A stretch of 64,000 nucleotides of DNA from Phyto melanocephala (lineage: Eukaryota > Arthropoda > Insecta > Diptera > Rhinophoridae). Below are positions 10,675-55,183 of the stretch, piece by piece. Below the pieces are notes generated by a model, which saw only the letters and a program-made list of their open reading frames with translations, was not told where the DNA came from and ran no database searches. The translations under genes were made by a program, and so were the position numbers. Positions within the stretch are counted from its first letter, which is position 1; every line of letters begins with the position of its first letter. Location: NCBI GenBank assembly GCA_941918925.1, contig OW799235.1, positions 22,111,201-22,175,200 of the forward strand. Direction: 5' to 3'.

Positions 10675-11283
10675 TTACTTGTGGCAAATACAAATACCTT
10701 CGTAATTACAAAAACCAGACCTAAAGTTATGTTGTACACACTGAGATTCACAATTCACGTTATTAAATCCAAAATAATTTAACTGTAACATTACGGTACA
10801 AACATCTCTTAGTGCAATTAAATCTGGTTCTGTACGTTCAACGTTGTCAGTTTCTTTTTTATCAGATGCAAACTTTGCAGTTTTTGTTTTATCAGATTCA
10901 ACCTTTTCAGCTTCTGTTTTATCAGATACGACAAATTTGCAGGCGCTACATTCTTTGAAAACGTGGCGTTGACAAATGCAAGTATTTTTGGATTTGCATT
11001 GACCAGTCTTGTAGTTACGCCTTCTGCAATGAAAAACACAGAAGAAATGATTTTGTGGGGAAGAAGTTGTCGTTGAGCTGCAAAAATCTTGATTGACACC
11101 TTTAAAACCAATATTTCCTCCTATATCAACTTCAACAAATTCTTCTTGTCTGACCTCAGATGTGTTATCAGTAACATCAGATACGACCGTATCCTTCTTT
11201 TTAGAGTGGGTTTCGTCGACGGCTTGCACAAGACCAACAGCGAAAATTGCAAGGAATGACAGCAATGTCCACAACAAGATCAT
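10675..11283 (-). CDS. gene 1: secreted two-domain defensin-like protein (202 aa)
   Basis: Residues 1-21 are a signal peptide ending VQA. An acidic region follows, with an NTS glycosylation sequon at 40-42. Domain 1 has Cys at 68, 82, 86, 96, 102 and 104, and domain 2 at 162, 178, 182, 192, 198 and 200. Both have the x3, x9, x5, x1 spacing of insect defensins. The Gly before the fourth Cys and the CxC ending fit a CSalpha-beta fold. The linker (about 105-160) is longer than in the paralogues and repeats the theme SDK(T/K)E..K; it also has two extra cysteines (112, 115). Residues equivalent to FNDIY after the signal are missing. No furin-type site separates the domains. Secretion and antimicrobial activity are inferred from the family. 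Confidence 0.85.
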   Translation of the reverse strand: MILLWTLLSFLAIFAVGLVQAVDETHSKKKDTVVSDVTDNTSEVRQEEFVEVDIGGNIGFKGVNQDFCSSTTTSSPQNHFFCVFHCRRRNYKTGQCKSKNTCICQRHVFKECSACKFVVSDKTEAEKVESDKTKTAKFASDKKETDNVERTEPDLIALRDVCTVMLQLNYFGFNNVNCESQCVQHNFRSGFCNYEGICICHK

Positions 11284-12796
11284 TTTTTGATAAACTTTAG
11301 TCTAAGACGTTAGATCGTTGAGAGTTAATAGATTAAAGTAATTTGGCAGTATTTATACTAAAATTGTTGTTTATCTTTGAATCTGTCAATATTTGTCTTT
11401 CAAACAGGACAAAATTTTTATTGTTTAAAAATACTGTTTGCTAACTCGTGTATTAAACAATGGTTTATTATATTCGTTTTAAATACATGCGTTATGAAAA
11501 AAACTAAAGATACTGGTTTCTTAATTGCAAAACCTAATTAAGTTTGTGATCTACTAAATTATTTGTAATACATGAAAATGATCTAAGTCAATCTATAAAG
11601 AAGAGTGTTATAGCAAAAGTATGTAAAAAAAAATTTCTTTCTGACATCGAATAAAAGGCAATTGCATCTAAACGTAACTACATGGAGTGATAAAATTTAA
11701 CAGGTATATTTTTTTAATCCATCTATTAAGAAATGTGTGTTAATAAAAATTTACCCCGCACGCACAGTACAATTTTTAGGCTATTAAAAAATCAAAACGT
11801 CATTAAACCAACAGAATTAGTTTATCATTCTAAAATGTCGCTCTTATAGCTATGTCGATATGATATTATATAATCTCGAAATATAATAGTAATGCAGCTA
11901 TTTTTACGACCAACTTCCATAAAACGAGTTTACTGTAATTTATATAATTTATATATGGAATCTAACAGAGATATAAGCACACAAATTGAACTACTATGAT
12001 GTTTTTCCTAAGCAGAGTATTATACACTAACAAGCAACTTATAATGCATGATGCCCACTCCATTTTACCATTAAATATTGACTTTTTGAAATTCTTTTAA
12101 AATTTGAATAAAATATAAACTAAATTATTTATTGTGTGTTTTTTTATAATTTTTCTATTAACAAAAACATAATACAAAACCGGTTAATCAAATCGGTTTA
12201 ACGTGTAAAAAACCTAAAAACCATTTTCTTTGGTTTAAAAAATTTTAATTTTCGAATTATTGTAAAACTGGTGAAGGTAACACGCCTACTTTAAGACCTT
12301 TTTCCCATTTAGTTTTTTCTTTAATTCATCTTGCTTAAATTTGAACAAAGATCTTTGAAAACTAAAGAACAGTTTACTGTAATGTCTAAGTTTAATTTGC
12401 TAGCATAGCCTACCTTGATATGTCTATTCGCAAATATAAGTTTATTTGTTATTATCACATGTTATAAGTGGTCATAATATGCAGGTAGTCCAAACAAAAT
12501 ACATATTCTTTCTAGCTATTATTTTATATATAGTTATGCATACAGTTATTATTTCAAAAATTTAAAAAAAACCGGTTTTCGCTTTTTTTACCAGTTTTTT
12601 TTTATTTTGTTAATAAAAAAATTTAAAGAAAAAACAAATTTTATTTACATTAATTGTTATTCAGAGTAGAACTTAAATAAATTCAGACTTTAAATTGTTT
12701 TTTTTAATACATTAACAATACAAAATTGTTTTTAAAAAAACACTGTATAAATAAACAAAGGAAAATATGGTTGACTTTATTAAAATAATATTTCAA
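11284..12796. other. unit 1 upstream flank
   Basis: No gene. This block is repeated upstream of gene 2 (17361-17592 plus 19828-20540), and related versions lie upstream of genes 3, 4 and 5. It contains several AACCGGTT-like motifs (about 12179, 12200, 12570) set in A/T runs. Confidence 0.7.
11351..11375 (-). promoter_or_regulatory. gene 1 TATA box and GATA site
   Basis: On the minus strand TAGTATAAATACTG lies about 70 bases before the ATG, and AAGATAAAC (a GATA factor site) lies just upstream. The same arrangement occurs before genes 3-5. I found no convincing GGGRNNYYCC kappa-B site within about 200 bases. Confidence 0.65.
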
Positions 12797-13140
12797 TAAG
12801 TAAGAATGATATATTCGGCCGTGCCGAATCTGACAATTCTCTTCACCATCATATACGTATGTATAGTGACCATATCGCGGCTAAGCTTAGACTTAATCTC
12901 ACTAATGCAAATTAAAATTTTGCTGTGACAGACGACAGTTTTTGCATTTAGTGAAAATTGTGAAAATTGTAAAGGCACTAGCAATTACAAATCTGAACAT
13001 GTTGCTACAAGTTGGGATGGCAGAAGGACAGTCTGAAATAAGAGAAAGTGAATTGTGGAAATTCATAGGTTCAATGGCATTTTTTCATGGAGGTTATAAT
13101 TCATATGTGGGTATATGGTATTTTTTTAAAGGACCGTAAC
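12797..13140 (-). mobile_element. DINE-like repeat, type C, 3' end fragment
   Basis: Begins with the reversed 3' terminus (AAGTAAGAATGATATATTCG, GCCGTGCCGAATC), then CTTCACCATCATATACGTATG as in other type C copies. It then loses similarity. The same fragment type begins at the far end of every unit's upstream flank. Confidence 0.6.
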
Positions 13141-13254
13141 AGCACTTTTTGGTAGAGTGACGTGCTTACGATGGACGATACCAGTATTAAGGAAAACTTA
13201 CACCTTAAAAGAAAGGTATTCCAAAAAATATGTAATAAAGTTCAACATATCGAT

Positions 13255-14650: not shown

Positions 14651-14654
14651 GTAT

Positions 14655-14766
14655 CAAAAGAGCGTAGGATTCGTTGGTAATATCATTAAATAGTATCCAC
14701 AGAAGCGCTGAATTTAATACACATTACTACAGCTTTCATTCAGTGAATAAAGTGGACGAAATTAAA
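14655..14766 (+). pseudogene. decayed copy of the 10.4-kb exon, unit 2 downstream flank
   Basis: GTTGGTAATATCA and ACATTACTACAGCTTTCATT match the exon next to gene 1, but the frame contains stops and the CAG|GTAATA donor has become CAGTGAATA. This marks the downstream edge of unit 2. The DINE copy at 14767 is inserted just beyond it. Confidence 0.6.
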
Positions 14767-16668
14767 CAAGTAAGAGCACTATATTCGGCTGTGCCGAATC
14801 TTTTATACCCACCACCAATTTTGTGTACATTTAAAGCACAATATTTATTATTTTGTTAATCGCTATTGAATAATATCTTTATAATAAAATATGTATCACT
14901 TTCTTTGTAGAGGGTGGTTAAATTTTTTAGGGCCCATGTTGATGGTGAACTACACCTAGTCTTTAAATTTGTTTTCTGCATTTCACTTGACATTTCTCAA
15001 TCTCAAACTTACTCAATTTGATCTGTAGAAAGATACGCAAATGAGCAACTGTTTAAAGTTATTCAGGTTTTTTTTATGAAAATGGGTGTTTAAATGCACT
15101 TCGTAATTCTTTTGATCAACATAATCATTCAAATTCATCCACAATCGGGAAAATTGTAAAAAATATTTAAATTTCTGCAAAACAGGTCTGTATAAAATGT
15201 TAGAAAATCTGTGAATGCCTTCTTATTTCGTTGAATAGGAAGCATGGTTGTTTTTTTCGATAGTGTGGCAAAAGAGCAGTCAACCTCGACTCATCATCGT
15301 GCCCAACAATTGAGCATCAACATTGTCATTGAAAATTTGGACCATCAGATAGAGGAGTGGCGCCAAGGATGGGGGGGGGGGGGGGGGGCATTTGGCCGAT
15401 ATTTTGTTAAATACATAATTGAACCGTACAAATATTATCATTACAAAAAGAAATAATAATAATTTCCTAAATAATTTGAATAATTCAACATCAGCCCTTA
15501 AAATTTAACCACCCTTTATAACTTCGATATGCTACTAAAAGGCTTTTGTAAATGTAGTCTTTTAATGAACGTGGGCGTTATAGTAGGCGTGTTAAAGTTA
15601 TTTTTACGAATGAGTACATTTTAGATGTTTCAATATAGCCTTTTATTATTCCAAAATCTTTATTAATAGAGAAATTATATGAATTTTAGGTAAAACGTTA
15701 TATGGGAGGTGGGCGTAAAAGTGGGCGTGGCACCTTGATTTTTTTGTACAATAATGACACTGCCTAGGGGGATATACGTAGCAAATTTGATCATCATACC
15801 TCTAATTTTGTCGGTTTTATGAGCTTTTAAATTTCATTAACGGTAGATAACGTGAAAAGTGGGCGTTATAGTAGGCGTGTCAAAGTTATTTTTGCGAATG
15901 AGTACATTTTAGATGTTTCAATATAGCCCTTTATAATTCCAAAATCTTTATTAATAGAGAAATTATATCAATTTTAGGTAAAACGTTATATGGGAGGTGG
16001 GCGTAAAAGTGGGCGTGGTACATTGATTTTCCGTTAAAAAAAAGCCTTTCACCAAAAAGCAAAGTGTGCAAAATTTCAGAGTCGTACATCCAATTTTGTT
16101 GGTTTTATGACGTTTTTGTTTTTAAATATACCGAAAAATACACTGTGCGGTATAAATTTTCGTACATTTTGATCGATAACTCCTTTCCTAATGATTAGAT
16201 TTAGGTAATTTTTGGTGAGAGATATTGCTTTGACTCGAGAAATATATATTCGAAGTTTCATGACTGTACGTTAATCCATTTGGACACAATACCATTTTAT
16301 TCGATGTTCGTAGGACACGGTTTTTTCGACCTACTCTTGCATTCCGAGCTATAACTCACTTCCTAATATTCCGATATAGCCCATTTTCAATACCAAACAA
16401 ACCTTGTCTATAAGAAAGATTCTGGCAAAATTTGAGCCTCCTAGCTTTTTCGGTGCGACCTCTATCGTGCTTTCAACAGACGGACAGACGGACAGACGGA
16501 CAGACAGACGGACAGACGGACAGACGGACGGACATAGCTAGATCGTCATCAAATCAAACCCTGATTCAGAATATATATACTTTATGGGGTCTAAAATGGA
16601 TATTTCGATGTGTTACAAACGGAATGACAAAATGAATATACCCCCACCATTTTTTTGGTGGCGGGTAT
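14767..16668 (-). mobile_element. DINE-like repeat, type A, full-length, with mariner passenger
   Basis: Complete from CAAGTAAGAGCACTATATTC with the GGCTGTGCC hairpin to the 5' hairpin CCCACCATTTTTTTGGTGGC ending GGGTAT. Contains two 288-bp internal units and a long (GACAGACG)n tract at about 16477-16533. It is almost identical to the copies at 27.3 and 52.4 kb, which suggests recent spread. Confidence 0.85.
14910..15516 (+). mobile_element. internally deleted mariner carried inside the DINE copy
   Basis: Inverted ends AGGGTGGTTAAATTTT...AAAATTTAACCACCCT flanked by TA. It keeps pieces of the transposase N-terminus (GAAAGATACGCAAATGAGCA, reading ERYANEQ) and C-terminus (VIENLDHQIEEWRQGWGG) but no catalytic centre. 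A run of 18 G interrupts the C-terminal part. Confidence 0.85.
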
Positions 16669-16793
16669 AAAAATAGGTGATTTTTTTTAATAAATATTTT
16701 TAATTCATTATTTTAAATACACATCTTTATCTTTATGGCTAGTTTTTGAATAAATACATTCAACATGATTTTAAACGCATGAAGGTCATAGCC

Positions 16794-17360
16794 TTACTTG
16801 TGGCAAATACAAATATTTGCGAAATTACAAAAACCAGACTTAAAGTTATATTGTATACACTTAAATTCACAATGATCATAATTAATTCCAAAAAAATTAA
16901 ACTTTGTTTCGGTACAAACATCTTTTAAGGCAATTAAATCTGGTTCTTTACGTTCAACCTTTTCATTTTCTGTTTTATCGGATATAACAAATTTGCTGGC
17001 GCTACTCTCGTTGATTATGTAGCGTTGACACATACAAGTGTTTTTGGATTTGCATTGACCAGTTTTGTATTTACGCCTTCTGCAGTGAAAAACACAACGA
17101 AAATGATTTTGTGTAGCAGAAGTTGTCGTTGAGCTACAAAGATCTTGATTGACGCCTTTCAAACCAATATTACTTCCGAATTCAATTTGAACAAATTCTT
17201 CCTGTCTGACCTCAGATGTGTTATCAGTAACATCAGATACTACCATATCCTTCTCTTTATAGTGGGTCTCGTCGAGAACGTAAATATCGTTAAAGTCTAC
17301 AGCTTGCACTAGGCCAACAGCGAAAATTGCAAGGAATGACAACAATGTACAGAAGAACAT
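16794..17360 (-). CDS. gene 2: secreted two-domain defensin-like protein (188 aa)
   Basis: Signal peptide 1-20, then VDFNDIYVLDETH and an acidic region with an NTS sequon at 47-49. Domain 1 has all six cysteines (75, 89, 93, 103, 109, 111), and so does domain 2 (149, 164, 168, 178, 184, 186), with spacing x13-x3-x9-x5-x1 and x14-x3-x9-x5-x1. The linker SDKTENEKVERKEP is the short form, unlike gene 1. With gene 1 it keeps what I take to be the ancestral two-domain cysteine set. It is intronless. An unrelated Cys4 lies in the signal peptide. Large DINE copies sit on both sides, inserted in its flanks. Confidence 0.85.
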   Translation of the reverse strand: MFFCTLLSFLAIFAVGLVQAVDFNDIYVLDETHYKEKDMVVSDVTDNTSEVRQEEFVQIEFGSNIGLKGVNQDLCSSTTTSATQNHFRCVFHCRRRKYKTGQCKSKNTCMCQRYIINESSASKFVISDKTENEKVERKEPDLIALKDVCTETKFNFFGINYDHCEFKCIQYNFKSGFCNFANICICHK

Positions 17361-17452
17361 AATTTTTTATTAAAAACTAAATGAGAACTATAGTCTAAGA
17401 CGTTCGATATTTGAAAGTTAATTGCTTAAAGTAAGTTTGCAGTATTTATACT

Positions 17453-17460
17453 AAAAGTTT
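17453..17460 (-). promoter_or_regulatory. gene 2 TATA box; GATA site lost
   Basis: TAGTATAAATACTGC lies about 95 bases before the ATG. At the position of the GATA site of the other four genes this gene reads AAAATAAAC, so the motif is gone. This may alter expression of gene 2 relative to its paralogues. Confidence 0.6.
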
Positions 17461-17734
17461 TTGTTTATTTTTGTATTTGTCAATATTTGTTTTTAAGACA
17501 AGACTAAAAGTTTATTTTTAAAAATACTGTTTACTAACTCGTGTATTAAACAAATGTTTCTAATATTCGTTTTGGGTATATTCGTTATGAAACAAGTAAG
17601 AGCACTATATTCGGCTGTGCCGAATCTTTTATACCCACCACCAATTTTGTGTACATTTAAAGCACAATATTTATTATTTTGTTAATCATTATGGATAATC
17701 TCTTTATAATAAAATATGTATCACTTTCTATGTA

Positions 17735-23593: not shown

Positions 23594-23689
23594 TCTGAAA
23601 TTGAGAAATATCAAATGAAATTCAGAAAAAAAACTTGACGTTTAGGTGAGGTTCATATTCCCCTTAATTTTATTCACCCTTTATAAATA

Positions 23690-24615: not shown

Positions 24616-25537
24616 AAGGGTGTTTTTTTAAGCCCGATAGAACTTGAAATTGTAAAAAATAACACAAAAAATTAAATTGTAATCAAAATTTTTTTTTTTT
24701 CGAAAGATCAATACGTGACATTAACATTTGAAAATGATTTCGGGCATATGGGCACCGCGGCTGTTCTTGACGAAGCGCATTCTGGACGTCCAATTTTGGG
24801 CCACTTTTTCGAGCACTGCTGGCCGTATGTCACGAATAACACGAACAATGCTGGCCTCCAAGGCGTCAGTTGTTGCTGGTTTATCAGCATAAACCAGTGA
24901 CTTCACGTAGCCCCACAGGAAATAATCGAGAGGTGTCAAATCGCACGACCTTGGAGGCCAATTGACAGGTCCATTTCTCGAAATCAACTTATCGCCAAAT
25001 TTTGATTTCAATAAGTCGATGGTTGCGTTCGCCGTATGGCACGTAGCGCCATCCTGTTGAAACCACATCTCCTCCGGATCAATGTCATCCATATTTTCAA
25101 ACAAAAAATCATTGATCATGGTGCGGTAACGATCTCCATTGACCGTAACGCGAGCTCCGGCCTCATTTTTCAAGAAATAAGGTCCGATGATGCCACCAGC
25201 GTGAAAACCGCACCAAACGGTGCATTTTTCTGGATGTAATGGAGTCTGTAGGGTCTCTTGTGGATTGGTCTCGCTCCATATGCGGCAATTTTGCTTATTA
25301 ACAAACCCGTTAAGCCAAAAATGCGCCTCATCGCTGAACACAATTTTGCGATAAAACAACGGACGTCCAGAATGCGCTTCGTCAAGAACAGCCGCGGTGC
25401 CCATATGCCCGAAATCATTTTCAAATGTTAATGTCACGTATTGATCTTTCGAATAAAAAAAAATTTTTGATTACAATTTAATTTTTTGTGTTATTTTTTA
25501 CAATTTCAAGTTCTATCGGGCTTAAAAAAACACCCTT
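24616..25537 (-). mobile_element. rearranged mariner with about 176-bp inverted ends
   Basis: Flanked by TA (24614-24615 and 25538-25539). The arms 24616-24791 and 25361-25537 are reverse complements, far longer than normal mariner ends. The left arm is the true 3' end of the transposase gene. The right arm is an inverted copy of it that replaces the gene's 5' half. Both arms stop at the same 8-bp palindrome GGACGTCC. Confidence 0.85.
24721..25437 (-). pseudogene. chimeric mariner transposase, 5' half replaced (238 codons)
   Basis: The open frame is intact, but its first 26 codons (MTLTFENDFGHMG...HSGRP) are the antisense reading of the duplicated 3' end, so they are not transposase. Genuine sequence starts at LFYRKIVFSDEAHFWLNGF with the first catalytic Asp, continues to WFQQDGATCHT (second Asp), and after 41 residues reaches TPLDYFLWGY (third Asp), i.e. 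a DD41D-type centre as in rosa-like elements. It ends MRFVKNSRGAHMPEIIFKC. The DNA-binding N-terminus is absent, so activity is unlikely. Confidence 0.85.
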
Positions 25538-25559: not shown

Positions 25560-26430
25560 ATTATCGTATCTAAGAAACTTTATTATGACTTCAGAACGGA
25601 AATCAATTTGTGACAAAGGATTTTTCTTTTGGATTTTTTGCTAACAAACAGTGCATTTTCCACGCATTGACCATTGCCTTACCAAGAACATTAATCCATA
25701 TTGGCCACCATCATTTCTTTCCTTTAACACATATGCGGTAATTGGTCACGGCGTTATCATGAAGGTCGACGCTACCCATACCATGATTATACTCCTGAAT
25801 CACTTTCGGTTGCGAAATAGTAATAATTTTCTTTTGCTTTTGACAATATCTTTAAAATTGATCATTGGTACTACTGTGGAGTTATTAGTAATTACATTGA
25901 CAACTGAATTGTCATTCCAGCGCACTAAAAATATTTCCTGTTAACTAACAAACAACTGGTCAAATTCTCCGCGCTGAGCACTTTTTAGAACCTTCAACGA
26001 GATGTTTGCCATTCTATTTTCTCGTACAGTACCAGTTGCATAAAATTTGCAGTCATTTAACAGGCACATAAGATGATTAGAGGAAAAAAGTTATAAAAAA
26101 AACAATGTTGCAATGGGGATCAGAAACGTTAGCTAGCAAATCTAAAACAGTTCTAGCGCCAACACCGATGTTTTTGTCGTGTGGTGTAGCTGAACCTGCG
26201 AATAAAATACTGTAGAATAAGTACCCACTTTCCGAGCACAAGCGCCATGACATAAATCCAAAACGGATTATTTTTCTTACAGGAGTGTCGCCCAAAGTAT
26301 GGAATCATCTGTTCATCAATTGAAATGATGTGGCTAAAAACTCCAAACATCATATACCTTTTATTTAGAGCATGAACAAGTGGACGAACTTTTGCAAAAC
26401 GATCTGATGTATCTAATACTATGTTCACAC
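25560..26430 (-). pseudogene. piggyBac transposase relic, C-terminal half
   Basis: From the high-coordinate end: SDRFAKVRPLVHALNKRYM, FGVFSHIISIDEQMIPYFGR, a frameshift, IIRFGFMSWRLCSESGYLF, then TGTVRENRMAN, LVRWNDNSVVNVITNNSTVV, GMGSVDLHDNAV, and WPIWINVLGKAMVNAWKMHC. These follow the order of piggyBac transposase (DDE_Tnp_1_7), including the GGVDLHD-like segment. Several frameshifts and stops are present. The fold-back mariner lies directly beyond its 3' end. The small plus-strand open frame at 25.65-25.94 kb is a shadow. Confidence 0.8.
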
Positions 26431-27047
26431 AGGCGCCTTTATTGACAATTTATAATATTATCGCAATTAAAGGCCTTATTGAGCTCAATATGCCATACTG
26501 AAAATTATTTTTAAATTGAGCAATATATACTTAATTGTTTCACTTATTGTCTAAAACTCGAAACACAACTCTTGAGAAGTATGTTCAGTGAGAAGAAAAT
26601 TCTATAGATGGCATTTCTAATGTCAAACAAATAAATATACAAAAAAAAAATTAAGAAAATGAAAAATTTTTGAAGAAAATTTAAAAAAAATTTAAAAAAA
26701 TTTGAGTAAATTCAAATACATACATATAAGTATATATATGTATAAGTATAATTGTAAATATATTTTATCAACAGGAAAAACACTGAAAAGAAGGCATTAT
26801 TTGATATGGTATAAATACATCGTATTTTACAGCTATCAAATGCTAATGGAGTAAGATAAATTGAGTATGTCTGAACACTTATTTTAATTGCTCAATCAAC
26901 ACTAAATTGAAACAATAAAAAATATCTGTCTGAACAGGGTATAAGCTATTATTATCTGCCAGATGAAAATACCTTTTAATTGTTCTAAACCGATTGCGGC
27001 TAATCGCCTGTTTGACCATTCAAACTCCCTCTGCTCTTAATTGTTTT
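26431..27047. other. intergenic, no gene seen
   Basis: AT-rich sequence with an A-rich stretch near 26640-26710 and nothing recognisable. Confidence 0.5.
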
Positions 27048-27278
27048 TGTTAAGTTTTCGTCTTGGTGAACTACCTTGACGAACCTTGGTGGCTAAACGA
27101 AACTAAATGGTAATTATCCTAGCGTATCACTTGAATTGGATTAATTAATTATTCTAAGAGTACAGCGAGGCAAACGAGCCTTGACTTTACATATAAATTT
27201 TTTCATATTTATTTTTACATAAATACACACATACAGACATAAATAGTTTCAATTACATTTTGTTTATTTTAATTAAAA

Positions 27279-30393: not shown

Positions 30394-30978
30394 TTACTTG
30401 TGACAAAGACAAACACCTGCGAAATTACAGAAACCAGACTTAAAGTTATGATGTCTACATTTAGATTTACAATACATGTTATTAAGTCCAGCAAAATTAA
30501 ACTTTAGCATTACGGTACAAACATTATTTAAGGCAATAATATGTGGTTCTTTACGTTCAACCTTTGGAGAATCAGTTGTATCCGATATGACAAAATTGCT
30601 GGATTTACTTTTGTTGATTATGTGGCGTTGGCACATACAAGTGTTTTTGGATATGAATTTACCAGTCTTGTATTTATGCCTTCTGCAATGAAAAATACAA
30701 CGGAAATGATTGTTTGTGGAAGTAGTGGTCGTTGAGCTGCAACCTTCTTGATTGTCACTGTTCGAACCAATATTTACTCCTAAAGTAATTGTAACAAATT
30801 CTTCTTGTCTGACCTCAGAAGTGTTATTAGTAACATCAGATACGACTGATCCTTCTACGAGATCCTTCTCTTTAAGGTGGGTCTCGTCGAGAGCGTAAAT
30901 ATCATTAAAGTCTACGGCTTGCACTAGACCAACAGCGAAAATCGCAAGGAATGACAACAATGTCCACAAGAAGATCAT
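30394..30978 (-). CDS. gene 3: two-domain defensin-like protein, domain 1 lacks Cys4 (194 aa)
   Basis: Signal peptide 1-21 (cut after VQA), acidic region with an NTS sequon at 52-54. Domain 1 has Cys at 80, 94, 98, 114 and 116; the fourth position is Phe108 (YKTGKF where genes 1 and 2 have YKTGQC). In insect defensins Cys1 pairs with Cys4, so Cys80 should be left unpaired. Domain 2 (154, 170, 174, 184, 190, 192) is complete, ending FCNFAGVCLCHK. TATA at 31059-31065 and a poly(A) signal at 30293-30298 bracket it, and it is intronless. Nearly identical to gene 4. Confidence 0.85.
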   Translation of the reverse strand: MIFLWTLLSFLAIFAVGLVQAVDFNDIYALDETHLKEKDLVEGSVVSDVTNNTSEVRQEEFVTITLGVNIGSNSDNQEGCSSTTTTSTNNHFRCIFHCRRHKYKTGKFISKNTCMCQRHIINKSKSSNFVISDTTDSPKVERKEPHIIALNNVCTVMLKFNFAGLNNMYCKSKCRHHNFKSGFCNFAGVCLCHK

Positions 30979-32370
30979 TTTTTAAAAGAAACAAAATGAG
31001 AACTATAGTCTATGACGTTAGATAGTTGAAAGTTTCTTGCTTAAAGTAATTTTACTGCATTTATACTAAAAGTTTTTGTTTATCTATGAATTAGTCTATA
31101 TTTGTCTTTTAAACAGTTCAAAATTTTTATTGTTTAAAAATACTGTTTATTAACTCGTGTATTAAACAATTGTTTCTAATATTCTTTTTGGGTATATTTG
31201 TTAAAAAAAAACTAAAAAAAAACTGGTTTTTTAATTGTTAATACATCCGAAGTGCTTGATATTGAAAACGATCTAAGTCAGAAGAGTGTTTTAGTTCATA
31301 ATGTATAAAAGTATATCATAAAAAATGACTTTCTAACATCGAATAAAAGGCACTTGCATCCAAACGTACATACGTAGAGTGATAAAATTTCAGAGGTATA
31401 TTTGTTTTAGGTCCATGTATTACGAAATGAGTTATAATTAAAAAAGTTAGTAAAAATTTTACCCTGCACAGTGTCTTTTTTAAGCTCGTTAAGAATCAAA
31501 ACGTCATAAATCCAACAGCATTAGATGTACCATTCTAAAATTTCGCTTACACATCTTTTGCTTAATGTCATTGTAATATTGGATAATGAAAGTAATGCAC
31601 CTACTTAAACGCCCAACTTTCATATAAGGAGTTTACTTTAATTTATATAATTTCTACTTACATGGAAACTGACTGAGATATATGCACACAAAAAAACTAC
31701 TTTGGTGGTTTTTCTAAGCAGATTATTTTACACTAACAAACAATTTGAATTTCTAGTCTTTTGAAATTCCTGTCAATTTTGAATAAAAAATAAACTAAAA
31801 AAAATATATATAATTAAAAAACATGGCATGAATACTTTCACTTTCACCTGCAATGTTAAGCATACTCACTATTATACTTGAGATAAATTGGTGGAATATA
31901 CGCGTGAGGCGCCCATATTATGTCCACTTACAACATGGACTGATATGTCATGGTTGCAGTCACCACAAAATATTATGATTTAAAAGTCCATGCGAAATAA
32001 ATATTCTTTGTAATTAGTAGTATAATAAACTATTCGGTATATAAAAAAACCCGGTTTTCGAATAATTCGAAAAACCGTAATTTTCAAAAACCGGTTTTCG
32101 ATTTTTTGCCAGTAAAGCCGGTTTGAATAACCGTTTTTAGTTTGTTTTGTTAATATAAAAATTAAAAAAACAAAACAAACAAATGTTATTTAGTTTATTA
32201 TCTATTAAAAATTGAGCACTTAAATACTTAACAAATACTTAAATACATTAACAGTAAAACTTTATTGTCAAAAACACACTGTATGAATAAACAAAAGAAC
32301 ATATTGAGATTAATCAAATAATCTTGATAAATGTGCATAGTTAATTGAATTTTCTAAAATAATATTTTAA
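30979..32370. other. unit 3 upstream flank
   Basis: No gene. Contains a cluster of ACCGGTTTT-type motifs at about 32046-32130 (AAACCCGGTTTTCGAATAAT, CAAAAACCGGTTTTCG, AAAGCCGGTTTGAATAACC). The block is shared with units 4 and 5. Confidence 0.7.
31059..31084 (-). promoter_or_regulatory. gene 3 TATA box and GATA site
   Basis: TAGTATAAATGCAG 81 bases before the ATG, with TAGATAAAC about 20 bases further upstream. Spacing is identical in genes 4 and 5. Confidence 0.65.
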
Positions 32371-37927: not shown

Positions 37928-39398
37928 TTTTTGTTAAGTTTTCGTCTTGGTGAACTACCTTGACGAACCTTGGTGGCTAAACGAAACTAAATGGTAATTA
38001 TCCTAGCGTATCACTTGAATTGGATTAATTAATTATTCTAAGAGTACAGCGAGGCAAACGAGCCTTGAATTTTCATATACATTTTTCAATATTTATTTTT
38101 ACATAAATACACACATACAGACATAAATAGTTTCAATTACATTTTGCTTATTTTAAGTCAAAAAAAAATATAAATCATTAGAATATATACAATAAATAAA
38201 TCAATAGGTAGGAAACGGTCACATAACCGAGCGCCTTATGGGTGGCATCCTCAAACAAATTTACCTGTAAAAAGCCTTGATCAAATGGAGGGAAGGAATT
38301 TAAATAATAACTTACCTATTTAGATAGCTATACGAATCGAAATGAAATTTAACACGCAGATAGTAACCTTGGTCAATGCATCGGTTACACTTGATCCCGA
38401 TAACTACGCTGACAAATTAACGGGCACATGCTAGACTGTAATAAAGTTCAAGCCTTTTGTTATGTAAAAAAACAAAGTCTATATATTACCTACATTTATG
38501 TATGTTCTTATTAGAACATAATCCTGCGGATTTGCAACTATATTTTATTATTCAGCCCAATCTTTAAATGATCGCAATCTCTTAAACTTATTTCTTATCT
38601 TATTCTTCTTCAAAAATTATATTTTTCAATTTAATTTTTCATTAAATATTTTTTAAGCTGACAGCTATTTTTTTGGGGTTTCGAAAAAAATCAATATCAG
38701 GTAAAAAGTTTATTAATGTCAAGTAAAAATATAATTCAACGTTTTAGTTTTATTGGTTGTTGGGTTTAAGCTGGTCTAAATGAATTTCACTGGTTCTTAT
38801 GCCAGATCATCAGTAAACCTTTACCCAAATTCTTGAAAATGTTTAAAGGGAATAGGGTAAACAGTTTAGGGTAAACAGAATAGGGTAAACAATTTAAAAT
38901 GTTATCAGTTATATTTTCAAATTCTTACTAACAAAATGAGAATTCAAAAATATAACAAAAAACTATAAAAAACTTTTTCAAAAACCCAACCAACAATTTT
39001 TCAATTTTGCATTATTTTATTATTCTAATCCCTTAATAAAACTAAAATTTTGAAAATTATTGGGAGAATATCCTAAACAATTAGTAAATTTTTTATGTAA
39101 ATATAATTCAAATTTATAAATAAATCAATTAGTCAAATAATTAAAAAAAAAAATAACAAAAATTTTTTCTGTGCAAAGACAATATATATTTATTTCTACC
39201 TTGAGCTCAGTTTTATTATTCTATACGAAGAGATTAAATTTTTTATTTGTGATAATGGAAGAATAATCTGAAAAAGTAAGTTTTTATCCCAAAACCATTT
39301 ATTTATATATTATTATTTTAAATATGCATTTTTAGCTTTATGGTACATTTTTGTATTAATACATTAAACACGATTTTATACGCATGAAGGTAATAGCC
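37928..39398. other. unit 4 downstream flank
   Basis: Same content as 29159-30393, including the candidate small intron on the minus strand, the triple GGGTAAACAG repeat near 38860-38895 and a possible poly(A) signal at 39298-39303 (minus). No complete gene. Confidence 0.6.
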
Positions 39399-39983
39399 TT
39401 ACTTGTGACAAAGACAAACACCTGCGAAATTACAAAAACCAGACTTATAGTTATGATGTCTACATGTAGATTTACAATACATGTTATTAAGTCCAACAAA
39501 ATTAAACTTTAGCATTACGGTACAAACATTATTTAAGGCAATAATATGTGGTTCTTTACGTTCAACCTTTGGAGAATCAGTTTTATCCGATATGAAAAAA
39601 TTGCTGGATCTACTTTCGTTGATTATGTGGCGTTGGCACATGCAAGTGTTTTTGGATATGAATTTACCAGTCTTGTATTTATGCCTTCTGCAATGAAAAA
39701 TACAACGGAAATGATTGTTTGTGGAAGTAGTGGTCGTTGAGCTGCAAACTTCTTGATTGTCACTATTCGAACCAATATTTACTCCTAAAGTAATTGTAAC
39801 AAATTCTTCTTGTCTGACCTCAGAAGTGTTATTAGTAACATCAGATACGACTGATCCTTCTACGAGATCCTTCTCTTTAAGGTGGGTCTCGTCGAGAGCG
39901 TAAATATCATTAAAGTCTACGGCTTGCACTAGACCAACAGCGAAAATCGCAAGGAATGACAACAATGTCCACAAGAAGATCAT
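39399..39983 (-). CDS. gene 4: two-domain defensin-like protein, domain 1 lacks Cys4 (194 aa)
   Basis: Same layout as gene 3: signal peptide 1-21, NTS sequon, domain 1 with Phe108 in place of Cys4, domain 2 complete. It differs from gene 3 at eight residues: G79V, K123E, K125R, V130F, T134K, A163V, K173T and F179Y. All lie at or after residue 79. I count eleven base changes in the gene, eight amino-acid-changing and three silent, and none in the first 230 or so bases. This means either a very recent duplicate with little constraint on the mature part, or gene conversion of the 5' part. Confidence 0.85.
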   Translation of the reverse strand: MIFLWTLLSFLAIFAVGLVQAVDFNDIYALDETHLKEKDLVEGSVVSDVTNNTSEVRQEEFVTITLGVNIGSNSDNQEVCSSTTTTSTNNHFRCIFHCRRHKYKTGKFISKNTCMCQRHIINESRSSNFFISDKTDSPKVERKEPHIIALNNVCTVMLKFNFVGLNNMYCKSTCRHHNYKSGFCNFAGVCLCHK

Positions 39984-41397
39984 TTTTTAAAAGAAACAAA
40001 ATGAGAACTATAGTCTATGACGTTAGATAGTTGAAAGTTTCTTGCTGAAAGTAATTTTACTGCATTTATACTAAAAGTTTTTGTTTATCTATGAATTAGT
40101 CTATATTTGTCTTTTAAACAGTTCAAAATTTTTATTGTTTAAAAATACTGTTTATTAACTCGTGTATTCAACAATTGTTTCTAATTTTCTTGTTTGTTAT
40201 ATTTGTTAAAAAAAAACTAAAAAAAACTGGTTTTTTAATTGTTAATACATCCGAAGTGCTTGATATTGAAAACGATCTAAGTCAGAAGAGTGTTTTAGTT
40301 TATAATGCAAAAGTATATCATAAAAAATTACTTTCTAACATCGAATAAAAGGCACTTGCCTCTAAACGTACATACGTAGAGTGATAAAATTTCACAGGTA
40401 TATTTGTTTTAGGTCCATGTATTACGAAATTAGTTATAATTAAAAAAGTTAGTAAAAATTTTACCCTGCACAGTGTCTTTTTTAAGCTCGTTAAGAATCA
40501 AAACGTCATAAATCCAACAGCATTAGATGTACCATTCTAAAATTTCGCTTACACATCTTTTGCTTAATGTCATTGTAATATTGGATAATGAAAGTAATGC
40601 ACCTACTTAAACGCCCAACTTTCATATAAGGAGTTTACTTTAATTTATATAATTTCTACTTAAATGGAAACTGACTGAGATATACACACAAAAATACAAC
40701 TTCTTTGGTGGTTTTTCTAAGCAGATTATTTTACACCAACAAACAACTTAAATTTCTAGTCTTTTCAAATTCCTGTCAATTTTGAATAATAAATAAACTA
40801 AATAAAATATATATAATTAAAAAACATGGCATGAATACTTTCACTTTCACCTGCAATGTTAAGCATACTCACTATTATACTTGAGATAGATTGGTGCAAT
40901 GTACGCGTGACACGCCCATATTGTGTCCACTTACAACATGGACTGATATGTCTTGGTTGCAGTCACTACAAAATATTATGATCTTGAAAGTCCATACGAA
41001 ATAAATATTCTTTGTAATTAGTAGTATAATAAACTATTCGGTATATAAAAAAACCCGGTTTCCAATCATTAGAAAAACTGTTATTTTCAAAAAACCGGTT
41101 TTCGATTTTTTCCACTAAAACTGGTTCGAATAACCGTTTTTTGTTTTGTTTTATTAATATAAAAATTAAAAAAAAAAACAAACAAATTTTATTTAGTTTG
41201 TTATCAATTCAAAATTGAGCACTCAAAAAATTTGTCTTTAAAAATAAATTCAATTTATTAAATAAACTTTTAAATACATTAACAGTAAAACCTTATTGTC
41301 AAAAAACACTGTATGAATAAACAAAGAAACAAATTGAGATTAATCAAATACACTTGATAAATGTGCATAGTTTGTTGACTTTCTTAAAATAATATTT
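39984..41397. other. unit 4 upstream flank
   Basis: No gene. Parallel to unit 3, with ACCGGTTTT-type motifs at about 41055-41130. Confidence 0.7.
40064..40089 (-). promoter_or_regulatory. gene 4 TATA box and GATA site
   Basis: Identical in arrangement to gene 3: TAGTATAAATGCAG with TAGATAAAC upstream. Confidence 0.65.
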
Positions 41398-42560
41398 CAA
41401 CAGTAAGAGTGCCATATGCGGCCTTGCCGAATATTGTGAGAGTTGATGTGTTCAAAGTAGTAATTACTATTTTTGACCGATATATCCTCCATTTTATTTC
41501 AGACGCCATCTTGGATTTAAACTTTTTAATTTTTGACTATATTCTACTGGCCAAGTCCTTTTGTTTGATACCAATATTGAGGTGGTACAATTGGGTGCAT
41601 TTTTTTAAATACTAGATTTTATCCAAATTAATTATACGCCATTTTGTAGAGGTGGCCATCTTGGATATAAAATTTGTTTAATCTTAAATATAAAATTGTC
41701 GTGTCGTGGTGCTTGTGATTAAACTCCGCCGAAATGGCTTGACCGATTTTCATGAAATTTTGTGTGCATATCGGGTAGGTCTGGGAATCGGTCAACATCT
41801 ATTTTTCATTCTCCCCAACGCCACCTGTTTTTTCATGCCCCATCAGGTAGGGCAGACTGCTGGACCGATCTTCTTGAGATTTTCACATAATATAACTAAG
41901 GCTCTGATATGATTGCAAGTTTTTGGTAAAATAATAATAATAAAATAATAATTATTATTATGATACTTTTTTTACCACTACTTTAATTCCCACTTTTTTA
42001 ATGATGTACTTTCATCGACATAGTTTTAAGTATTTTTCTTCAAATTGTAAACAATTTACAGTCCAGCCAATGCCGAAATAAACGTTTAAGAATCGGTCAA
42101 CATCTATTTTATATACTCCCAAATATTTAGGGTGACTCACCCCAAGGGACAATTTACGCCTCACCTAAACAACGTAATGACTTCGATGAAAGTTTAAACT
42201 AATATAATATATCTGCATGTTTTTTGTTTAAGGTAAAAAAAAATATACTTGAAATAATTTATATGGCAAAACAACGTTTGCCGGGTCAGCTAGTATTCTA
42301 TATTTTGCTTGCCAGCCTTCCCTTTGTATGCCCATAATGTTCCTTTCTCTTGTCCAGAAGCTCAAAATCGTTTTTAGATTGTAAATTTTATGAAAAACAC
42401 CGAAATACTTGTATTTTTGCTCTTATATCTCAGACAGTTTTAAACCGCTTTGTCTGTTTTTCTCACTAGTAATTTTCGAGACTACGTTTTGTATTCTGGT
42501 GCCTTTAGTATGTACAAAAATTCAATAGGCGCTATGATATACATATGAAAAAAAATATTT
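41398..42560 (-). mobile_element. DINE-like repeat, type C, 3' part, interrupted by a Helitron
   Basis: Starts CAGTAAGAGTGCCATATGCG at the end of unit 4, has the CGCCATCTTGGATTTAAAC units (about 41503, 41653), is split by a Helitron, and resumes with TTCTATATTTTGCTTGCCAG. The 5' hairpin was not found. Confidence 0.6.
41682..42293 (+). mobile_element. non-autonomous canonical Helitron
   Basis: 5' end TCTTAAATATAAAATTGTCG and 3' end CGTTTGCCGGGTCAGCTAG, inserted between A and T (A41681, T42294). Interior CTCCGCCGAAATGGCTTGAC and CGATTTTCATGAAATTTTGT is typical of insect Helitrons. No Rep/helicase is encoded. The related type C copy at 32.93 kb shows the uninterrupted target (AATGTTCTATATTTTGCTTG). 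Confidence 0.8.
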
Positions 42561-43117: not shown

Positions 43118-44321
43118 AAGGGTTTTCTTTTCAATAAGAGCACTACAAAAGTTTTTTTTTTTTTAATAAAACAAAAACGGTCAATGTAATTCTTTATTCC
43201 TGTAAAAGTACGTTTAATGCCATTATGTATGGAATTCGATTTCTTTTGCATGGCCACCAGTCCAGACGCTGAACAATTTTCGACGGTTTTCAAGCATAAA
43301 TCTGGCGATACTGCATAGACCATTTGATGTAGCCTTAAAGAAAATAGTCTAACGGCATCAAATCGCACGACCGAGGCGGCCAATCGACTGTACTATTTCG
43401 TGAAATAACACATTTTCCAAACTTGGTTTCCAATAAATTGATTGTGACATTCGGTGTGTGGCTTGTAGCGCCGTCGTGTTGGAACCACATGTCTTCCAAG
43501 TCTATATCATCCAATTGGGGCCAAAAATATTCTGTTATCATTGAACGGTAGCGATTCCCATTCACAATAACGTGCCGGTCTTTATCATCACGGAGGAAGT
43601 ACGGCCCAATGTCGCCGCCGGCCCATAAACCACACCAAACCGTAATTTTTTCGGGATGCAATGATGACTTATGGAGTACGTGTGGATTGCTGTCTGACCA
43701 ATAACGCATATTTTGCTTATTGACGAAGCCATTCAGCCAGATCGCTGAAGATGATTTTTCGATGAAAATCCGAATCATTTTCAAGTTGTTGATCAGCCCA
43801 ATTCACGAACATACGACGCTTCTGGTGGGCAAGCGGCTTCAGTTCTTGTGTCAATTTGATCTTGTTAGGATGTAGACAAAGATCTTTTCGCAAAATTCGC
43901 CACAACGACGTCACAGAGATACCCAGAACGACGTGTGAGAGCCACATTTGGGCTTTCTTCAACTGAAGCCTCAGCGGCAGCAATATTCTCGACACTATGG
44001 GTACTTCTTTGTCTCACTGGCACGAGAACATTTTGTACTCTGCCTGTGTATTCAAATTTTTCCACTAGACGCTCAATTGTTGATCTGGTAGGATGATTAT
44101 GACGACCATAAATTGGACGTACCGCTCTTAACGTTAAGGCCACTGACTCGGAATTTCGGTAGTAAATTTTAATAATTTCGACTCGTTGTTGGCTCGTATA
44201 TCTTTCCATGATGAAATGGCAAACCTTACTGAAGAGAAATGTCAAAAGAGTGGCAAAAAATATGGCGTCGTTTGCTGTCCCTATCGGTCTAATTTGGTAG
44301 CGTGCCTGTTGAAAACCCCTT
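43118..44321 (-). mobile_element. mariner element, about 1.2 kb, near full-length
   Basis: Ends AAGGGTTTTC and GAAAACCCCTT are inverted and flanked by TA (43116-43117 and 44322-44323). The transposase gene runs on the minus strand but is broken. It is related to the 24.6-kb and 7.8-kb elements. Confidence 0.8.
43135..44209 (-). pseudogene. DD41D mariner transposase pseudogene
   Basis: Starts MERYTSQQRVEIIKIYYRNS with a helix-turn-helix region (TLRAVRPIYGRHNHPTRSTI). After a frameshift come VLGISVTSLWRILRKDL and LTQELKPLAHQKRR, then FHRKIIFSD (first Asp), a small deletion, WLNGFVNKQNMRYW, WCGLWAGGDIGPYFLRDD, WFQHDGATSHT (second Asp) and MPLDYFL (third Asp), with 41 residues between the last two. 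The C-terminus is degraded (VENCSASGLVAM in a shifted frame). At least three frame disruptions make it inactive. Confidence 0.85.
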
Positions 44322-52146: not shown

Positions 52147-52224
52147 TTTTTATTGTATTTGTTGTAGTTATGTAGTCACCTGTTTGATTCGCCTTTGTCT
52201 ATATTTTGCCTACATATATGTACA

Positions 52225-52382
52225 TATGTATGTGTGTTCTTATTAGAACATAATCCTGCGGATTTGCAACTATATTTTATTATTTAGCTCAATCTTTTAC
52301 ATGATTGCAATTTCTTAAACTTATTCTTAAAATCTTGACAAGAATCACACTTTTCAATTTTTTTTTTTTCATTAAATATTTT
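52225..52382. other. array-unit fragment left of the DINE copy
   Basis: TTCTTATTAGAACATAATCC and GCGGATTTGCAACTATATTT match the downstream flanks of units 3 and 4. This is the outer part of unit 5, split from the rest by the DINE insertion at 52383. Confidence 0.75.
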
Positions 52383-54269
52383 TATACCCGCCACCAAAAA
52401 AATGGTGGGGGTATATTCATTTTGTCATTCCGTTTGTAACACATCGAAATATCCATTTTAGACCCCATAAAGTATATATATTCTGAATCAGGGTTTGATT
52501 TGATGACGATCTAGCTATGTCCGTCCGTCTGTCCGTCTGTCCGTCTGTCAGTCTGTCCGTCTGTTGAAAGCACGATAGAGGTCGCACCGAAAAAGCTAGG
52601 AGGCTCAAATTTTGCCAGAATCTTTCTTATAGACAAGGTTTGTTTGGTATTGAAAATGGGCTATATCGGAATATTAGGAAGTGAGTTATAGCTCGGAATG
52701 CAAGAGTAGGTCGAAAAAACCGTGTCCTACGAACATCGAATAAAATGGTATTGTGTCCAAATGGATTAACGTACAGTCATGAAACTTCTAATATATATTT
52801 CTCGAGTCAAAGCAATATCTCTCACCAAAAATTACCTAAATCTAATCATTAGGAAAGGAGTTATCGATCAAAATGTACGAAAATTTATACCGCACAGTGT
52901 ATTTTTCGGTATATTTAAAAACAAAAACGTCATAAAACCAACAAAATTGGATGTACGACTCTGAAATTTTGCACACTTTGCTTTTTAATGAAAGGCTTTT
53001 TTTTGACGGAAAATCAATGTGCCACGCCCACTTTTACGCCCACCTCCCATATAACGTTTTACCTAAAATTGATATAATTTCTCTATTAATAAAGATTTTG
53101 GAATTATAAAGGGCTATATTGAAACATCTAAAATGTACTCATTCGCAAAAATAACTTTGACACGCCTACTATAACGCCCACTTTTCACGTTATCTACCGT
53201 TAATGAAATTTAAAAGCTCATAAAACCGACAAAATTAGAGGTATGATGATCAAATTTGCTACGTATATCCCCCTAGGCAGTGTCATTATTGTACAAAAAA
53301 ATTAAGGTGCCACGCCCACTTTTACGCCCACCTCCCATATAACGTTTTACCTAAAATTCATAAAATTTCTCTATTAATAAAGATTTTGGAATAATAAAAG
53401 GCTATATTGAAACATCTAAAATGTACTCATTCGTAAAAATAACTTTAACACGCCTACTATAACGCCCACGTTCATTAAAAGACTACATTTACAAAAGCCT
53501 TTTAGTAGCATATCGAAGTTATAAAGGGTGGTTAAATTTTAAGGGCTGATGTTGAATTATTCAAATTATTTAGGAAATTATTATTATTTCTTTTTGTAAT
53601 GATAATATTTGTACGGTTCAATTATGTATTTAACAAAATATCGGCCAAATGCCCCCCCCCCCCCCATCCTTGGCGCCACTCCTCTATCTGATGGTCCAAA
53701 TTTTCAATGACAATGTTGATGCTCAATTGTTGGGCACGATGATGAGTCGAGGTTGACTGCTCTTTTGCCACACTATCGAAAAAAACAACCATGCTTCCTA
53801 TTCAACGAAATAAGAAGGCATTCACAGATTTTCTAACATTTTATACAGACCTGTTTTGCAGAAATTTAAATATTTTTTACAATTTTCCCGATTGTGGATG
53901 AATTTGAATGATTATGTTGATCAAAAGAATTACGAAGTGCATTTAAACACCCATTTTCATAAAAAAAACCTGAATAACTTTAAACAGTTGCTCATTTGCG
54001 TATCTTTCTACAGATCAAATTGAGTAAGTTTGAGATTGAGAAATGTCAAGTGAAATGCAGAAAACAAATTTAAAGACTAGGTGTAGTTCACCTTCAACAT
54101 GGGCCCTAAAAAATTTAACCACCCTCTACAAAGAAAGTGATACATATTTTATTATAAAGATATTATTCAATAGCGATTAACAAAATAATAAATATTGTGC
54201 TTTAAATGTACACAAAATTGGTGGTGGGTATAAAAGATTCGGCACAGCCGAATATAGTGCTCTTACTTG
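52383..54269 (+). mobile_element. DINE-like repeat, type A, full-length
   Basis: Nearly identical, in reverse, to the 14.8 and 27.3 kb copies. Units 3 and 4 show the uninterrupted site CATTAAATATTTTTTAAGCT. Here CATTAAATATTTT precedes TATACCC, and CTTACTTG is followed by TTAAAGCTGACAGC, so insertion was within a T run (T|T). Confidence 0.85.
53524..54126 (-). mobile_element. mariner passenger
   Basis: AAGGGTGGTTAAATTTTAAG and AATTTAACCACCCTC ends, TA flanks, C run of fourteen. Same site as in six other copies. Confidence 0.85.
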
Positions 54270-54610
54270 TTAAAGCTGACAGCTATTTTTTTGGGTTTTC
54301 GAAAAAAATTAATATCAGGTAAAAAATTTATTAATATTAATTAAAAATATAATTCAAATTTATAAATAAATCAATCAGTCAAATAATTAAAAAAAAATTA
54401 ACAAAAATGTTTTCTGTGCAAAGACAATATTTATTTATTTCTAGCTTGAACTCAGTTTTATTTTTAATTATTCTATACGAAGAGATTAAATTTTTTATTT
54501 GTGACACCATTTATTTATATATTTTTATTTTAAATATGCATTTTTAGCTTTATGGTACATTTTGGTATTAATACATTAAACACGATTTTAAAAGCACGAA
54601 AGTAATAGCC
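54270..54610. other. unit 5 downstream flank
   Basis: Matches 29650-29710 and 30090-30390 of unit 3 with an internal deletion. A possible AATAAA poly(A) signal (minus) lies at 54510-54515. Confidence 0.65.
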
Positions 54611-55183
54611 TTATTTGTAGCAAATACAAATACCTGCGAAATTACAAAACCCAGACTTAAAGTTATGTTGTATACAATTATATCCACAATACATGTTATT
54701 AAGTCCAAACAAATTTATTTGCTCTACGTTACAAACATCTTTAAAGGCAATTAAATATGGTTCTTTAATTTCAACTTTGCGGTAATGAGTTTTATCCGAT
54801 ATGACAAAATCATTGGCGCTACTTTCGTTATTTATGTGGCGTTGGCACATATAAGTGTTTTTGGAGATGAATTGATCAGTCTGCGTTCTGCAATGAAAAA
54901 TACAACGGAAATGATTGTTTGCGGAAGGAGTAGTCATTGAGCTGCAATTTTTTTGATTGTCACCGTTCGAACCAATATTTTCTTCTAAAGTAATTGTAAC
55001 AAATTCTTCTTGTCTGACCTCAGAAGTGTTTTCAGTAACATCAGACACGACTGATCCTTCTACGAGATCCTTCTCTTTAAGGTGGGTCTCGTCGAGAGCG
55101 TAAATATCATTAAAGTCTACGGCTTGCACTAGATTAACAGCGAAAATTGCAAGGAATGACAACAATGTCCACAAGAAGATCAT
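54611..55183 (-). CDS. gene 5: two-domain defensin-like protein with decayed domain 1 (190 aa)
   Basis: Signal peptide 1-21 (LAIFAVNLVQA), NTS sequon at 52-54. Domain 1 keeps only Cys80, 94, 98 and 113: Cys4 is Phe105, Cys5 is Tyr111 (KNTYMC), and three residues are missing between Cys3 and position 4 (CRTQTDQF). The defensin disulphide set 1-4 and 2-5 is therefore impossible there, and only 3-6 remains. Domain 2 is complete (151, 166, 170, 180, 186, 188) and ends FCNFAGICICYK. The open frame is otherwise intact and has the TATA and GATA elements, so it is probably still expressed. Confidence 0.85.
   Translation of the reverse strand: MIFLWTLLSFLAIFAVNLVQAVDFNDIYALDETHLKEKDLVEGSVVSDVTENTSEVRQEEFVTITLEENIGSNGDNQKNCSSMTTPSANNHFRCIFHCRTQTDQFISKNTYMCQRHINNESSANDFVISDKTHYRKVEIKEPYLIAFKDVCNVEQINLFGLNNMYCGYNCIQHNFKSGFCNFAGICICYK

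What the first reader, a model, noticed from the sequence alone, without database searches (positions are those of the whole stretch)
10675..55183. Tandem family of secreted proteins with two insect-defensin domains in one chain
Seen directly: five intronless minus-strand genes, each with a signal peptide and two six-cysteine modules spaced like insect defensins (x3-x9-x5-x1 at the end), the second closing the protein. Known insect defensins are single-domain peptides released from a pro-region by a dibasic cut. Here I see no such site between the domains. A double-domain form could bridge two targets, bind cooperatively, or act as a seminal, venom or salivary factor instead of a classical antimicrobial. 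I recall no named family with this design.
Basis: partly seen in the sequence, partly recalled or inferred. Interest (0 to 1): 0.9.

Follow-up and report, generated by a model that had tools for sequence, protein, structure and literature searches.

The report
Two-module fly defensin gene cluster
A cluster of five insect genes each encodes a probably secreted protein with two defensin-type modules in one chain, without the usual cutting site directly before each module, which suggests that an antimicrobial peptide has been turned into something that acts as one larger protein.

Summary
Each is one open frame with a hydrophobic N-terminus, an acidic region and two cysteine modules of insect-defensin type. 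Only 7 of 10 modules have all six cysteines: module 1 has lost one in g3 and g4 and two in g5. Module 1 of g1 and g2 passes Pfam's Defensin_2 cut-off; no module 2 does. A profile search found 111 PF01097 proteins, all single-module. Of 105 such precursors, 101 have a dibasic pair within 4 residues of the first cysteine; 0 of 10 modules here do. A modest AlphaFold2 model gives helix-strand-strand for both modules of g2. Module 1 is cationic (weakly in g5) and mildly constrained; module 2 keeps its cysteines but otherwise shows no constraint. Best reading: a defensin-derived two-module protein that mostly works uncut. The design is known elsewhere (X-tox, nasonin-2/-6, MtDef5, AvBD11); I found no fly example. 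Function, tissue and species are open.

The parts
10675..11283 (-). gene g1, 202 aa, two complete six-Cys modules, two extra Cys and a linker 20 residues longer than in the others
10972..11082 (-). g1 module 1, six Cys, net charge +6
   Evidence: Pfam Defensin_2 31.6 bits
10684..10800 (-). g1 module 2, six Cys, net charge -1 (C1 to C6)
16794..17360 (-). gene g2, 188 aa, two complete modules
17028..17138 (-). g2 module 1, six Cys, net charge +8
   Evidence: Pfam Defensin_2 29.0 bits
16803..16916 (-). g2 module 2, six Cys, net charge 0 (C1 to C6)
30394..30978 (-). gene g3, 194 aa, 11 Cys after the signal part (odd)
30631..30741 (-). g3 module 1, C4 missing
   Evidence: coordinates worked out from residue numbers
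30403..30519 (-). g3 module 2, six Cys
39399..39983 (-). gene g4, 194 aa, near-copy of g3 (98.1% DNA identity), 11 Cys
39636..39746 (-). g4 module 1, C4 missing
   Evidence: coordinates worked out from residue numbers
39408..39524 (-). g4 module 2, six Cys
54611..55183 (-). gene g5, 190 aa
54845..54946 (-). g5 module 1, C4 and C5 missing and three residues deleted; no Pfam match at E <= 1 on its own
   Evidence: coordinates worked out from residue numbers
54620..54733 (-). g5 module 2, six Cys
11350..11357 (-). TATA-box-like site 74 bp upstream of the g1 ATG
17443..17450 (-). TATA-box-like site 90 bp upstream of the g2 ATG
31058..31065 (-). TATA-box-like site 87 bp upstream of the g3 ATG
40063..40070 (-). 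TATA-box-like site 87 bp upstream of the g4 ATG
55263..55270 (-). TATA-box-like site 87 bp upstream of the g5 ATG

Best explanation
A fly-type prodefensin gene came to carry two defensin modules in one chain, and the cleavage site that normally sits next to the first cysteine is absent before both. The gene then multiplied in tandem. The product is most likely secreted and works mainly as one two-module protein rather than as released antimicrobial peptides. Proposed working: module 1, strongly cationic in g1 and g2, supplies electrostatic binding to an anionic surface; module 2, with all six cysteines kept in five of five genes while other residues change freely, supplies the variable contact surface. 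In g3-g5 module 1 has lost cysteines and module 2 carries the function. Shown: genes, modules, absence of the usual processing site, open frames kept despite divergence. Inferred: secretion, lack of cutting in vivo, the binding roles, loss of classical killing.
For: Module 1 of g1 and g2 matches Pfam Defensin_2 at 31.6 and 29.0 bits, cut-off 20.4. A profile of the modules finds 111 proteins, all PF01097, each with exactly one module. Of 105 precursors, 101 have a dibasic pair within 4 residues of C1 and 98 the R-x-[KR]-R form; 0 of 10 modules here have such a pair. Tree of 121 modules: m1 clade 100/100, m2 clade 100/100, all ten together 93/100 (not starred), so two modules existed before the copies. 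Coding indels 7 of 7 in multiples of three, against 1, 1 and 13 in 210 bp upstream (none in 95 bp downstream); under simulated drift at 0.1 changes per site 3.8% of frames stay open. Omega 0.47 in m1, 1.30 in m2. Module 1 charge +8, +7, +7 in g2-g4, above the maximum of +6 in 111 single defensins (C1 to C6). Helix-strand-strand predicted in both modules. Precedents: nasonin-2/-6 'without protease processing signals'; X-tox, secreted and not processed into bioactive defensins.
Against: Each linker has a dibasic pair; cutting there would free module 2 with a 10-18-residue extension. X-tox itself is cut into smaller components in haemocytes, though not into active defensins, so that parallel does not show an uncut chain. 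Intact two-domain defensins can be antimicrobial (MtDef5). Module 2 charge (C1 to end) is 0, +1, +6, +5, +1 against a median of +4; low values also occur in 7 of 111 single defensins (at most +1), so neutrality is unusual but not unique. Omega of m2 does not differ from 1 (2dlnL 0.46) and the m1-m2 difference is borderline; 1 of 3 gene pairs shows it by Fisher's test. No expression or protein data.
Confidence: 0.55

Rival explanations
1. A polyprotein precursor: cutting at the linker's dibasic pair releases module 2, with module 1 and the acidic region acting as pro-part.
For: One dibasic pair in each of five linkers, R-K at the same place in g2, g3 and g4; acidic region before module 1 (-6 to -11). 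Decay of module 1 in g3-g5 would then be tolerated.
Against: The pair is not at the same place in g1 (K-K) and g5 (R-K) and lies 10 to 18 residues from C1; 101 of 105 known precursors have it within 4. Module 1 is kept complete and constrained in g1 and g2.
Confidence: 0.2
2. A two-warhead antimicrobial: the intact chain kills microbes itself, the two modules giving avidity, as described for the plant bi-domain defensin MtDef5.
For: Two defensin modules, strongly cationic module 1 with six Cys in g1 and g2; MtDef5 is antifungal as a two-domain protein, and gamma-core changes that stop its oligomerisation stop its activity (abstract).
Against: Module 2 near neutral in g1, g2 and g5 and module 1 incomplete in g3-g5; MtDef5 is called highly cationic, while the chain after the signal part is -8 to +5 here. 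No kB-type motif in 800 bp upstream of any of 5 genes, but only about 0.3 were expected per gene by chance and no known immune promoter was scanned.
Confidence: 0.17
3. A decaying cluster: relaxed remnants of an immune gene family with no current function.
For: Cysteine losses in module 1 of three genes, omega near 1 in module 2, transposon fragments between the copies.
Against: Five of five frames open, 7 of 7 coding indels in frame, six of six module 2 cysteines kept in all five genes, proximal promoter conserved in all five.
Confidence: 0.08

Closest known systems
Single-domain insect defensins, above all of Diptera (phormicin, sapecin, lucifensin; Pfam PF01097 Defensin_2)
   Same: Cysteine spacing x3-x9-x5-x1 and a signal part plus pro-region before the module; 111 of 111 profile hits carry PF01097.
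   Different: One module in 111 of 111 and a dibasic pair within 4 residues of C1 in 101 of 105 precursors; here two modules and no such pair.
X-tox proteins of Lepidoptera (Spod-11-tox and others)
   Same: Several imperfect CSab defensin motifs in one secreted chain; spacers without conserved cleavage sites; not processed into bioactive defensins (PMC2728511: abstract, introduction and discussion read).
   Different: 3 to 11 motifs; first loop x4 and cationic domains in Spod-11-tox; induced in haemocytes and there cut into smaller components. Here two modules, first loops x13-x15, expression unknown. Reported as restricted to Lepidoptera.
Nasonin-2 and nasonin-6 of Nasonia vitripennis
   Same: Defensin-like unit repeated in one chain without protease processing signals (PMC2853521: section 9 and passages).
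   Different: 4-5 repeats, subfamily without propeptide and with a short n-loop, one repeat per exon in nasonin-6; here two repeats, acidic N-terminal region, long n-loop, one open frame.
MtDef5, bi-domain plant defensin of Medicago truncatula
   Same: Two defensin domains in one chain (PMC5700942, abstract).
   Different: Seven-residue linker, domains of 50 residues, highly cationic and antifungal; here a linker of 37 or 57 residues and untested activity.
AvBD11, avian double beta-defensin
   Same: Two defensin domains and 12 cysteines in one chain; second domain richer in acidic residues (PMC9138766, passages).
   Different: Beta-defensin fold, not CSab (recalled); domains on separate exons and thought by the authors to have different ancestors.

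Membership tests
Insect defensins (PF01097 Defensin_2) | profile match above the curated cut-off, g1 and g2 | tested here: met
   Whole proteins 31.5 and 27.9 bits, cut-off 20.4; the match lies in module 1 (31.6, 29.0), not module 2 (10.5; not listed).
Insect defensins (PF01097 Defensin_2) | profile match above the curated cut-off, g3, g4 and g5 | tested here: not met
   14.2, 17.1 and 16.7 bits; best single module is g5 module 2 at 19.7.
Insect defensins (PF01097 Defensin_2) | six cysteines spaced C-x5-16-C-x3-C-x9-10-C-x4-7-C-x1-C (consensus as quoted in the abstract of PMC3234185, seen in the listing), module 2 of all genes and module 1 of g1, g2 | tested here: met
   7 of 10 modules.
Insect defensins (PF01097 Defensin_2) | the same six cysteines in module 1 of g3, g4 and g5 | tested here: not met
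   Five, five and four cysteines.
Insect defensins (PF01097 Defensin_2) | CSab fold (helix plus two strands) | tested here: inconclusive
Classical insect prodefensins | one module, released at a dibasic site directly before C1 | tested here: not met
   Two modules; 0 of 10 with a pair within 4 residues of C1, against 101 of 105 database precursors.
X-tox | several CSab motifs in one chain without conserved cleavage sites between them | tested here: inconclusive
   Two modules; each linker has one dibasic pair, at the same place in g2-g4 only.
X-tox | derived from lepidopteran defensins (first loop x4 in Spod-11-tox) | tested here: not met
X-tox | induced in haemocytes on infection, not antimicrobial | not testable with these tools
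   No expression or activity data.
Nasonin-2/-6 type repeats | 4-5 nasonin-like repeats, no propeptide, short n-loop | tested here: not met
   Two repeats, 46-58-residue acidic region before module 1, long n-loop.

The most novel reading that the evidence does not exclude
A fly lineage has, independently of moths and parasitic wasps, turned a defensin into a two-module ligand that is not cut next to its modules, and the segments that used to be cut off have become structural: in the model a strand precedes each module (residues 53-60 and 142-146 of g2), giving a strand-helix-strand-strand unit like plant defensins and scorpion toxins. The second module then diversified as the recognition surface, for instance in reproduction or in contact with a host.
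Probability: 0.18. Interest if true: 0.7.

Novelty: new variant of a known kind. Interest (0 to 1): 0.43.

Why it matters
If right, flies add another independent case of chained defensin modules freed from the usual maturation step, beside moth X-tox and wasp nasonins. That would make a general question testable: what becomes of an antimicrobial peptide once it no longer has to be released. The cluster holds its own series, from two intact modules (g1, g2) to one incomplete and one intact (g3-g5), so loss of module 1 can be tied to function within one genome.

Tried and rejected
Whole-chain protein search (g2): 209 candidates, none with E <= 1. N-terminal half as a four-row alignment: 1360 candidates, none with E <= 10. 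Both need shared exact 5-residue words, so distant two-module relatives are not excluded; single-domain precursors under about 103 aa could not be candidates.

That the linker is a decayed propeptide: linker and pro-region of the same gene resemble each other in g2 (4 of 2000 shuffles reach the score), g3 (2) and g5 (19), not in g1 (788) or g4 (162); profile comparison P 0.008 but probability 5%, with controls pro/m2 and linker/m1 at P 0.53 and 0.55. Against the 105 database propeptides the mean scores are mostly within shuffles (linker g2 47, g3 21, g4 79, g5 74, g1 146 of 300; pro 66 to 222 of 300), the best case being the top score of the g5 pro-region (9 of 300). Suggestive only.

Internal duplication against fusion of two defensins: all ten modules group (93/100, not starred) on 36 columns with odd composition and long branches. 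Not settled.

Immune induction: no kB-type motif (GGGRNNYYYY or GGGRN4-5CC) in 800 bp upstream of 5 genes, with 0.24 and 0.10 expected per stretch by chance; no GGG in the 250 bp next to any ATG, one CCC each in g2, g3 and g5. No known immune promoter was scanned, so this is weak.

Species: not identified. Nine of the 63 frames were scanned with Pfam; two gave transposon or helix-turn-helix domains, seven nothing.

Papers: ten searches (the last found none) of an open-licence library lacking most subscription journals; listings were capped (20 of 89, 20 of 52, 10 of 104). I saw titles and starts of abstracts there, and no fly protein with two defensin domains. The passages seen of the Stomoxys genome paper describe 11 defensins in two clusters without saying whether any has two domains.

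Full report
What is there. Each runs from ATG to stop with a hydrophobic start, an acidic region (net -6 to -11), module 1, a linker of 37 residues (57 in g1), and module 2, which ends the protein two residues after its last cysteine. A six-frame scan for a defensin-type cysteine pattern finds seven matches in the 64 kb, all in these genes, and none in 30 Markov-simulated windows. Module 1 of g3 and g4 lacks the fourth cysteine; that of g5 lacks the fourth and fifth and three residues. g3 and g4 therefore have 11 cysteines after the signal part, an odd number, which leaves one free or available for a link between chains (inference).

What it is related to. Whole-protein Pfam scores pass the Defensin_2 cut-off (20.4) in g1 (31.5) and g2 (27.9) and not in g3 (14.2), g4 (17.1) or g5 (16.7). 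Module by module, the credit belongs to module 1 of g1 and g2; module 2 of g1 to g4 scores best, below cut-off, with the plant gamma-thionin or the scorpion-toxin profile, and module 2 of g5 nearly reaches Defensin_2 (19.7). The two PDB segments pull the profile towards insect defensins, so this places the relatives without by itself proving membership. Each of the 111 has exactly one module. PDB sequence searches give Anopheles defensin constructs, insect defensin A, sapecin and lucifensin at or near the top.

Maturation. Of the 105 database precursors longer than 60 residues, 101 have a dibasic pair ending within four residues of the first cysteine, 98 as R-x-[KR]-R. None of the ten modules here does. 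Each linker does hold one dibasic pair: R-K with 10 residues between it and C1 in g2, g3 and g4, R-K with 14 in g5, K-K with 18 in g1; g1 also has K-K-K in its acidic region.

Origin. In a tree of 121 modules the five module 1 rows form one clade (100/100) and the five module 2 rows another (100/100), so two modules existed before the genes multiplied; all ten fall together against the 111 others at 93/100, which fits an internal duplication but is not secure on 36 columns. Module 1 and module 2 profiles match each other (hhalign probability 85%, P 6e-6). The likeness of linker and pro-region is suggestive only. g3 and g4 lie in a duplicated block of about 3.3 kb (29159-32403 and 38164-41432, 96.1% identical).

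Selection. Coding indels (24, 12, 12, 9, 60, 3, 3) are all multiples of three; upstream ones are 1, 1 and 13, and the 95 bp downstream have none. Simulated drift leaves 20% of frames open at 0.05 changes per site, 3.8% at 0.1 and 0.15% at 0.2; pairwise synonymous distances are 0.03 to 0.37. Omega is 0.77 overall, 0.47 in module 1 and 1.30 in module 2. With kappas held at their estimates, omega = 1 costs 2dlnL 4.0 in module 1 and 0.46 in module 2: module 1 is mildly constrained, module 2 is compatible with 1, and positive selection is not shown. One shared omega, read off the grid, costs at most about 3.9, a borderline difference. Of three overlapping gene pairs tested, g1-g2 alone shows more amino-acid change in module 2 (Fisher p 0.0056; g3-g5 1.0, g1-g3 0.71). 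The six cysteines of module 2 are kept in all five genes.

Charge. From C1 to C6, module 1 is +6, +8, +7, +7, +2 and module 2 is -1, 0, +5, +4, 0; the 111 single defensins have median +2, range -1 to +6, with 9 at or below 0. From C1 to the end, module 2 is 0, +1, +6, +5, +1 against median +4, with 7 of 111 at or below +1. Module 1 of g2-g4 is thus outside the range on the cationic side; module 2 of g1, g2 and g5 is at the low end but not outside it.

Regulation. All five genes share a TATA-like box 74 to 90 bp before the ATG and roughly 200 bp of alignable upstream sequence, and none has a kB-type motif in 800 bp. This leans away from classical immune induction but is weak, since few were expected by chance and no positive control was run.

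Known parallels. Spod-11-tox of a moth carries 11 defensin motifs, is secreted, is cut into smaller components in haemocytes, and is not processed into active defensins (abstract, introduction and discussion of PMC2728511). Nasonin-2 and -6 of a wasp carry 4-5 repeats without processing signals (PMC2853521, section 9 and passages). MtDef5 shows that a two-domain chain can kill fungi (abstract of PMC5700942). AvBD11 is a double beta-defensin in birds (passages of PMC9138766). [quoted passage not shown] whether any of those has two domains is not said in what I saw.

Verdict. A real two-module defensin family, so far seen only in this window, and a new variant of a known kind. That it is defensin-derived and that two modules predate the tandem copies I hold at about 0.9; that it works mainly uncut, about 0.62 (lowered); that it is no longer a classical released antimicrobial, about 0.55. 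Target, tissue and species are open.

Noticed in passing
14760-16675, 27271-29165, 52377-54274: A repeat of about 1.9 kb occurs three times at 98.6-98.7% identity to the first, once inverted, with more diverged copies elsewhere in the window; one copy ends where the g3 duplication block begins.
   Followed up: partly
43865-44320 (-) and 26153-26449 (-): Mobile-element pieces: helix-turn-helix domain DUF4817 (64.5 bits) and DDE_Tnp_1_7 (29.0 bits) by Pfam.
   Followed up: partly
24721-25470 (-) and 43335-43802 (-): Two related frames that look like mariner-type transposases (label recalled); no Pfam match at E <= 0.01.
   Followed up: no
upstream of g1-g5, about 70 to 180 bp before each ATG: Repeated RTAAAYA sites, like forkhead-factor motifs (recalled), in AT-rich sequence; no chance test was made.
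   Followed up: no
10675-11283 (-), linker of g1: g1 has a longer linker with SDK-type internal repetition and two extra cysteines between the modules.
   Followed up: no
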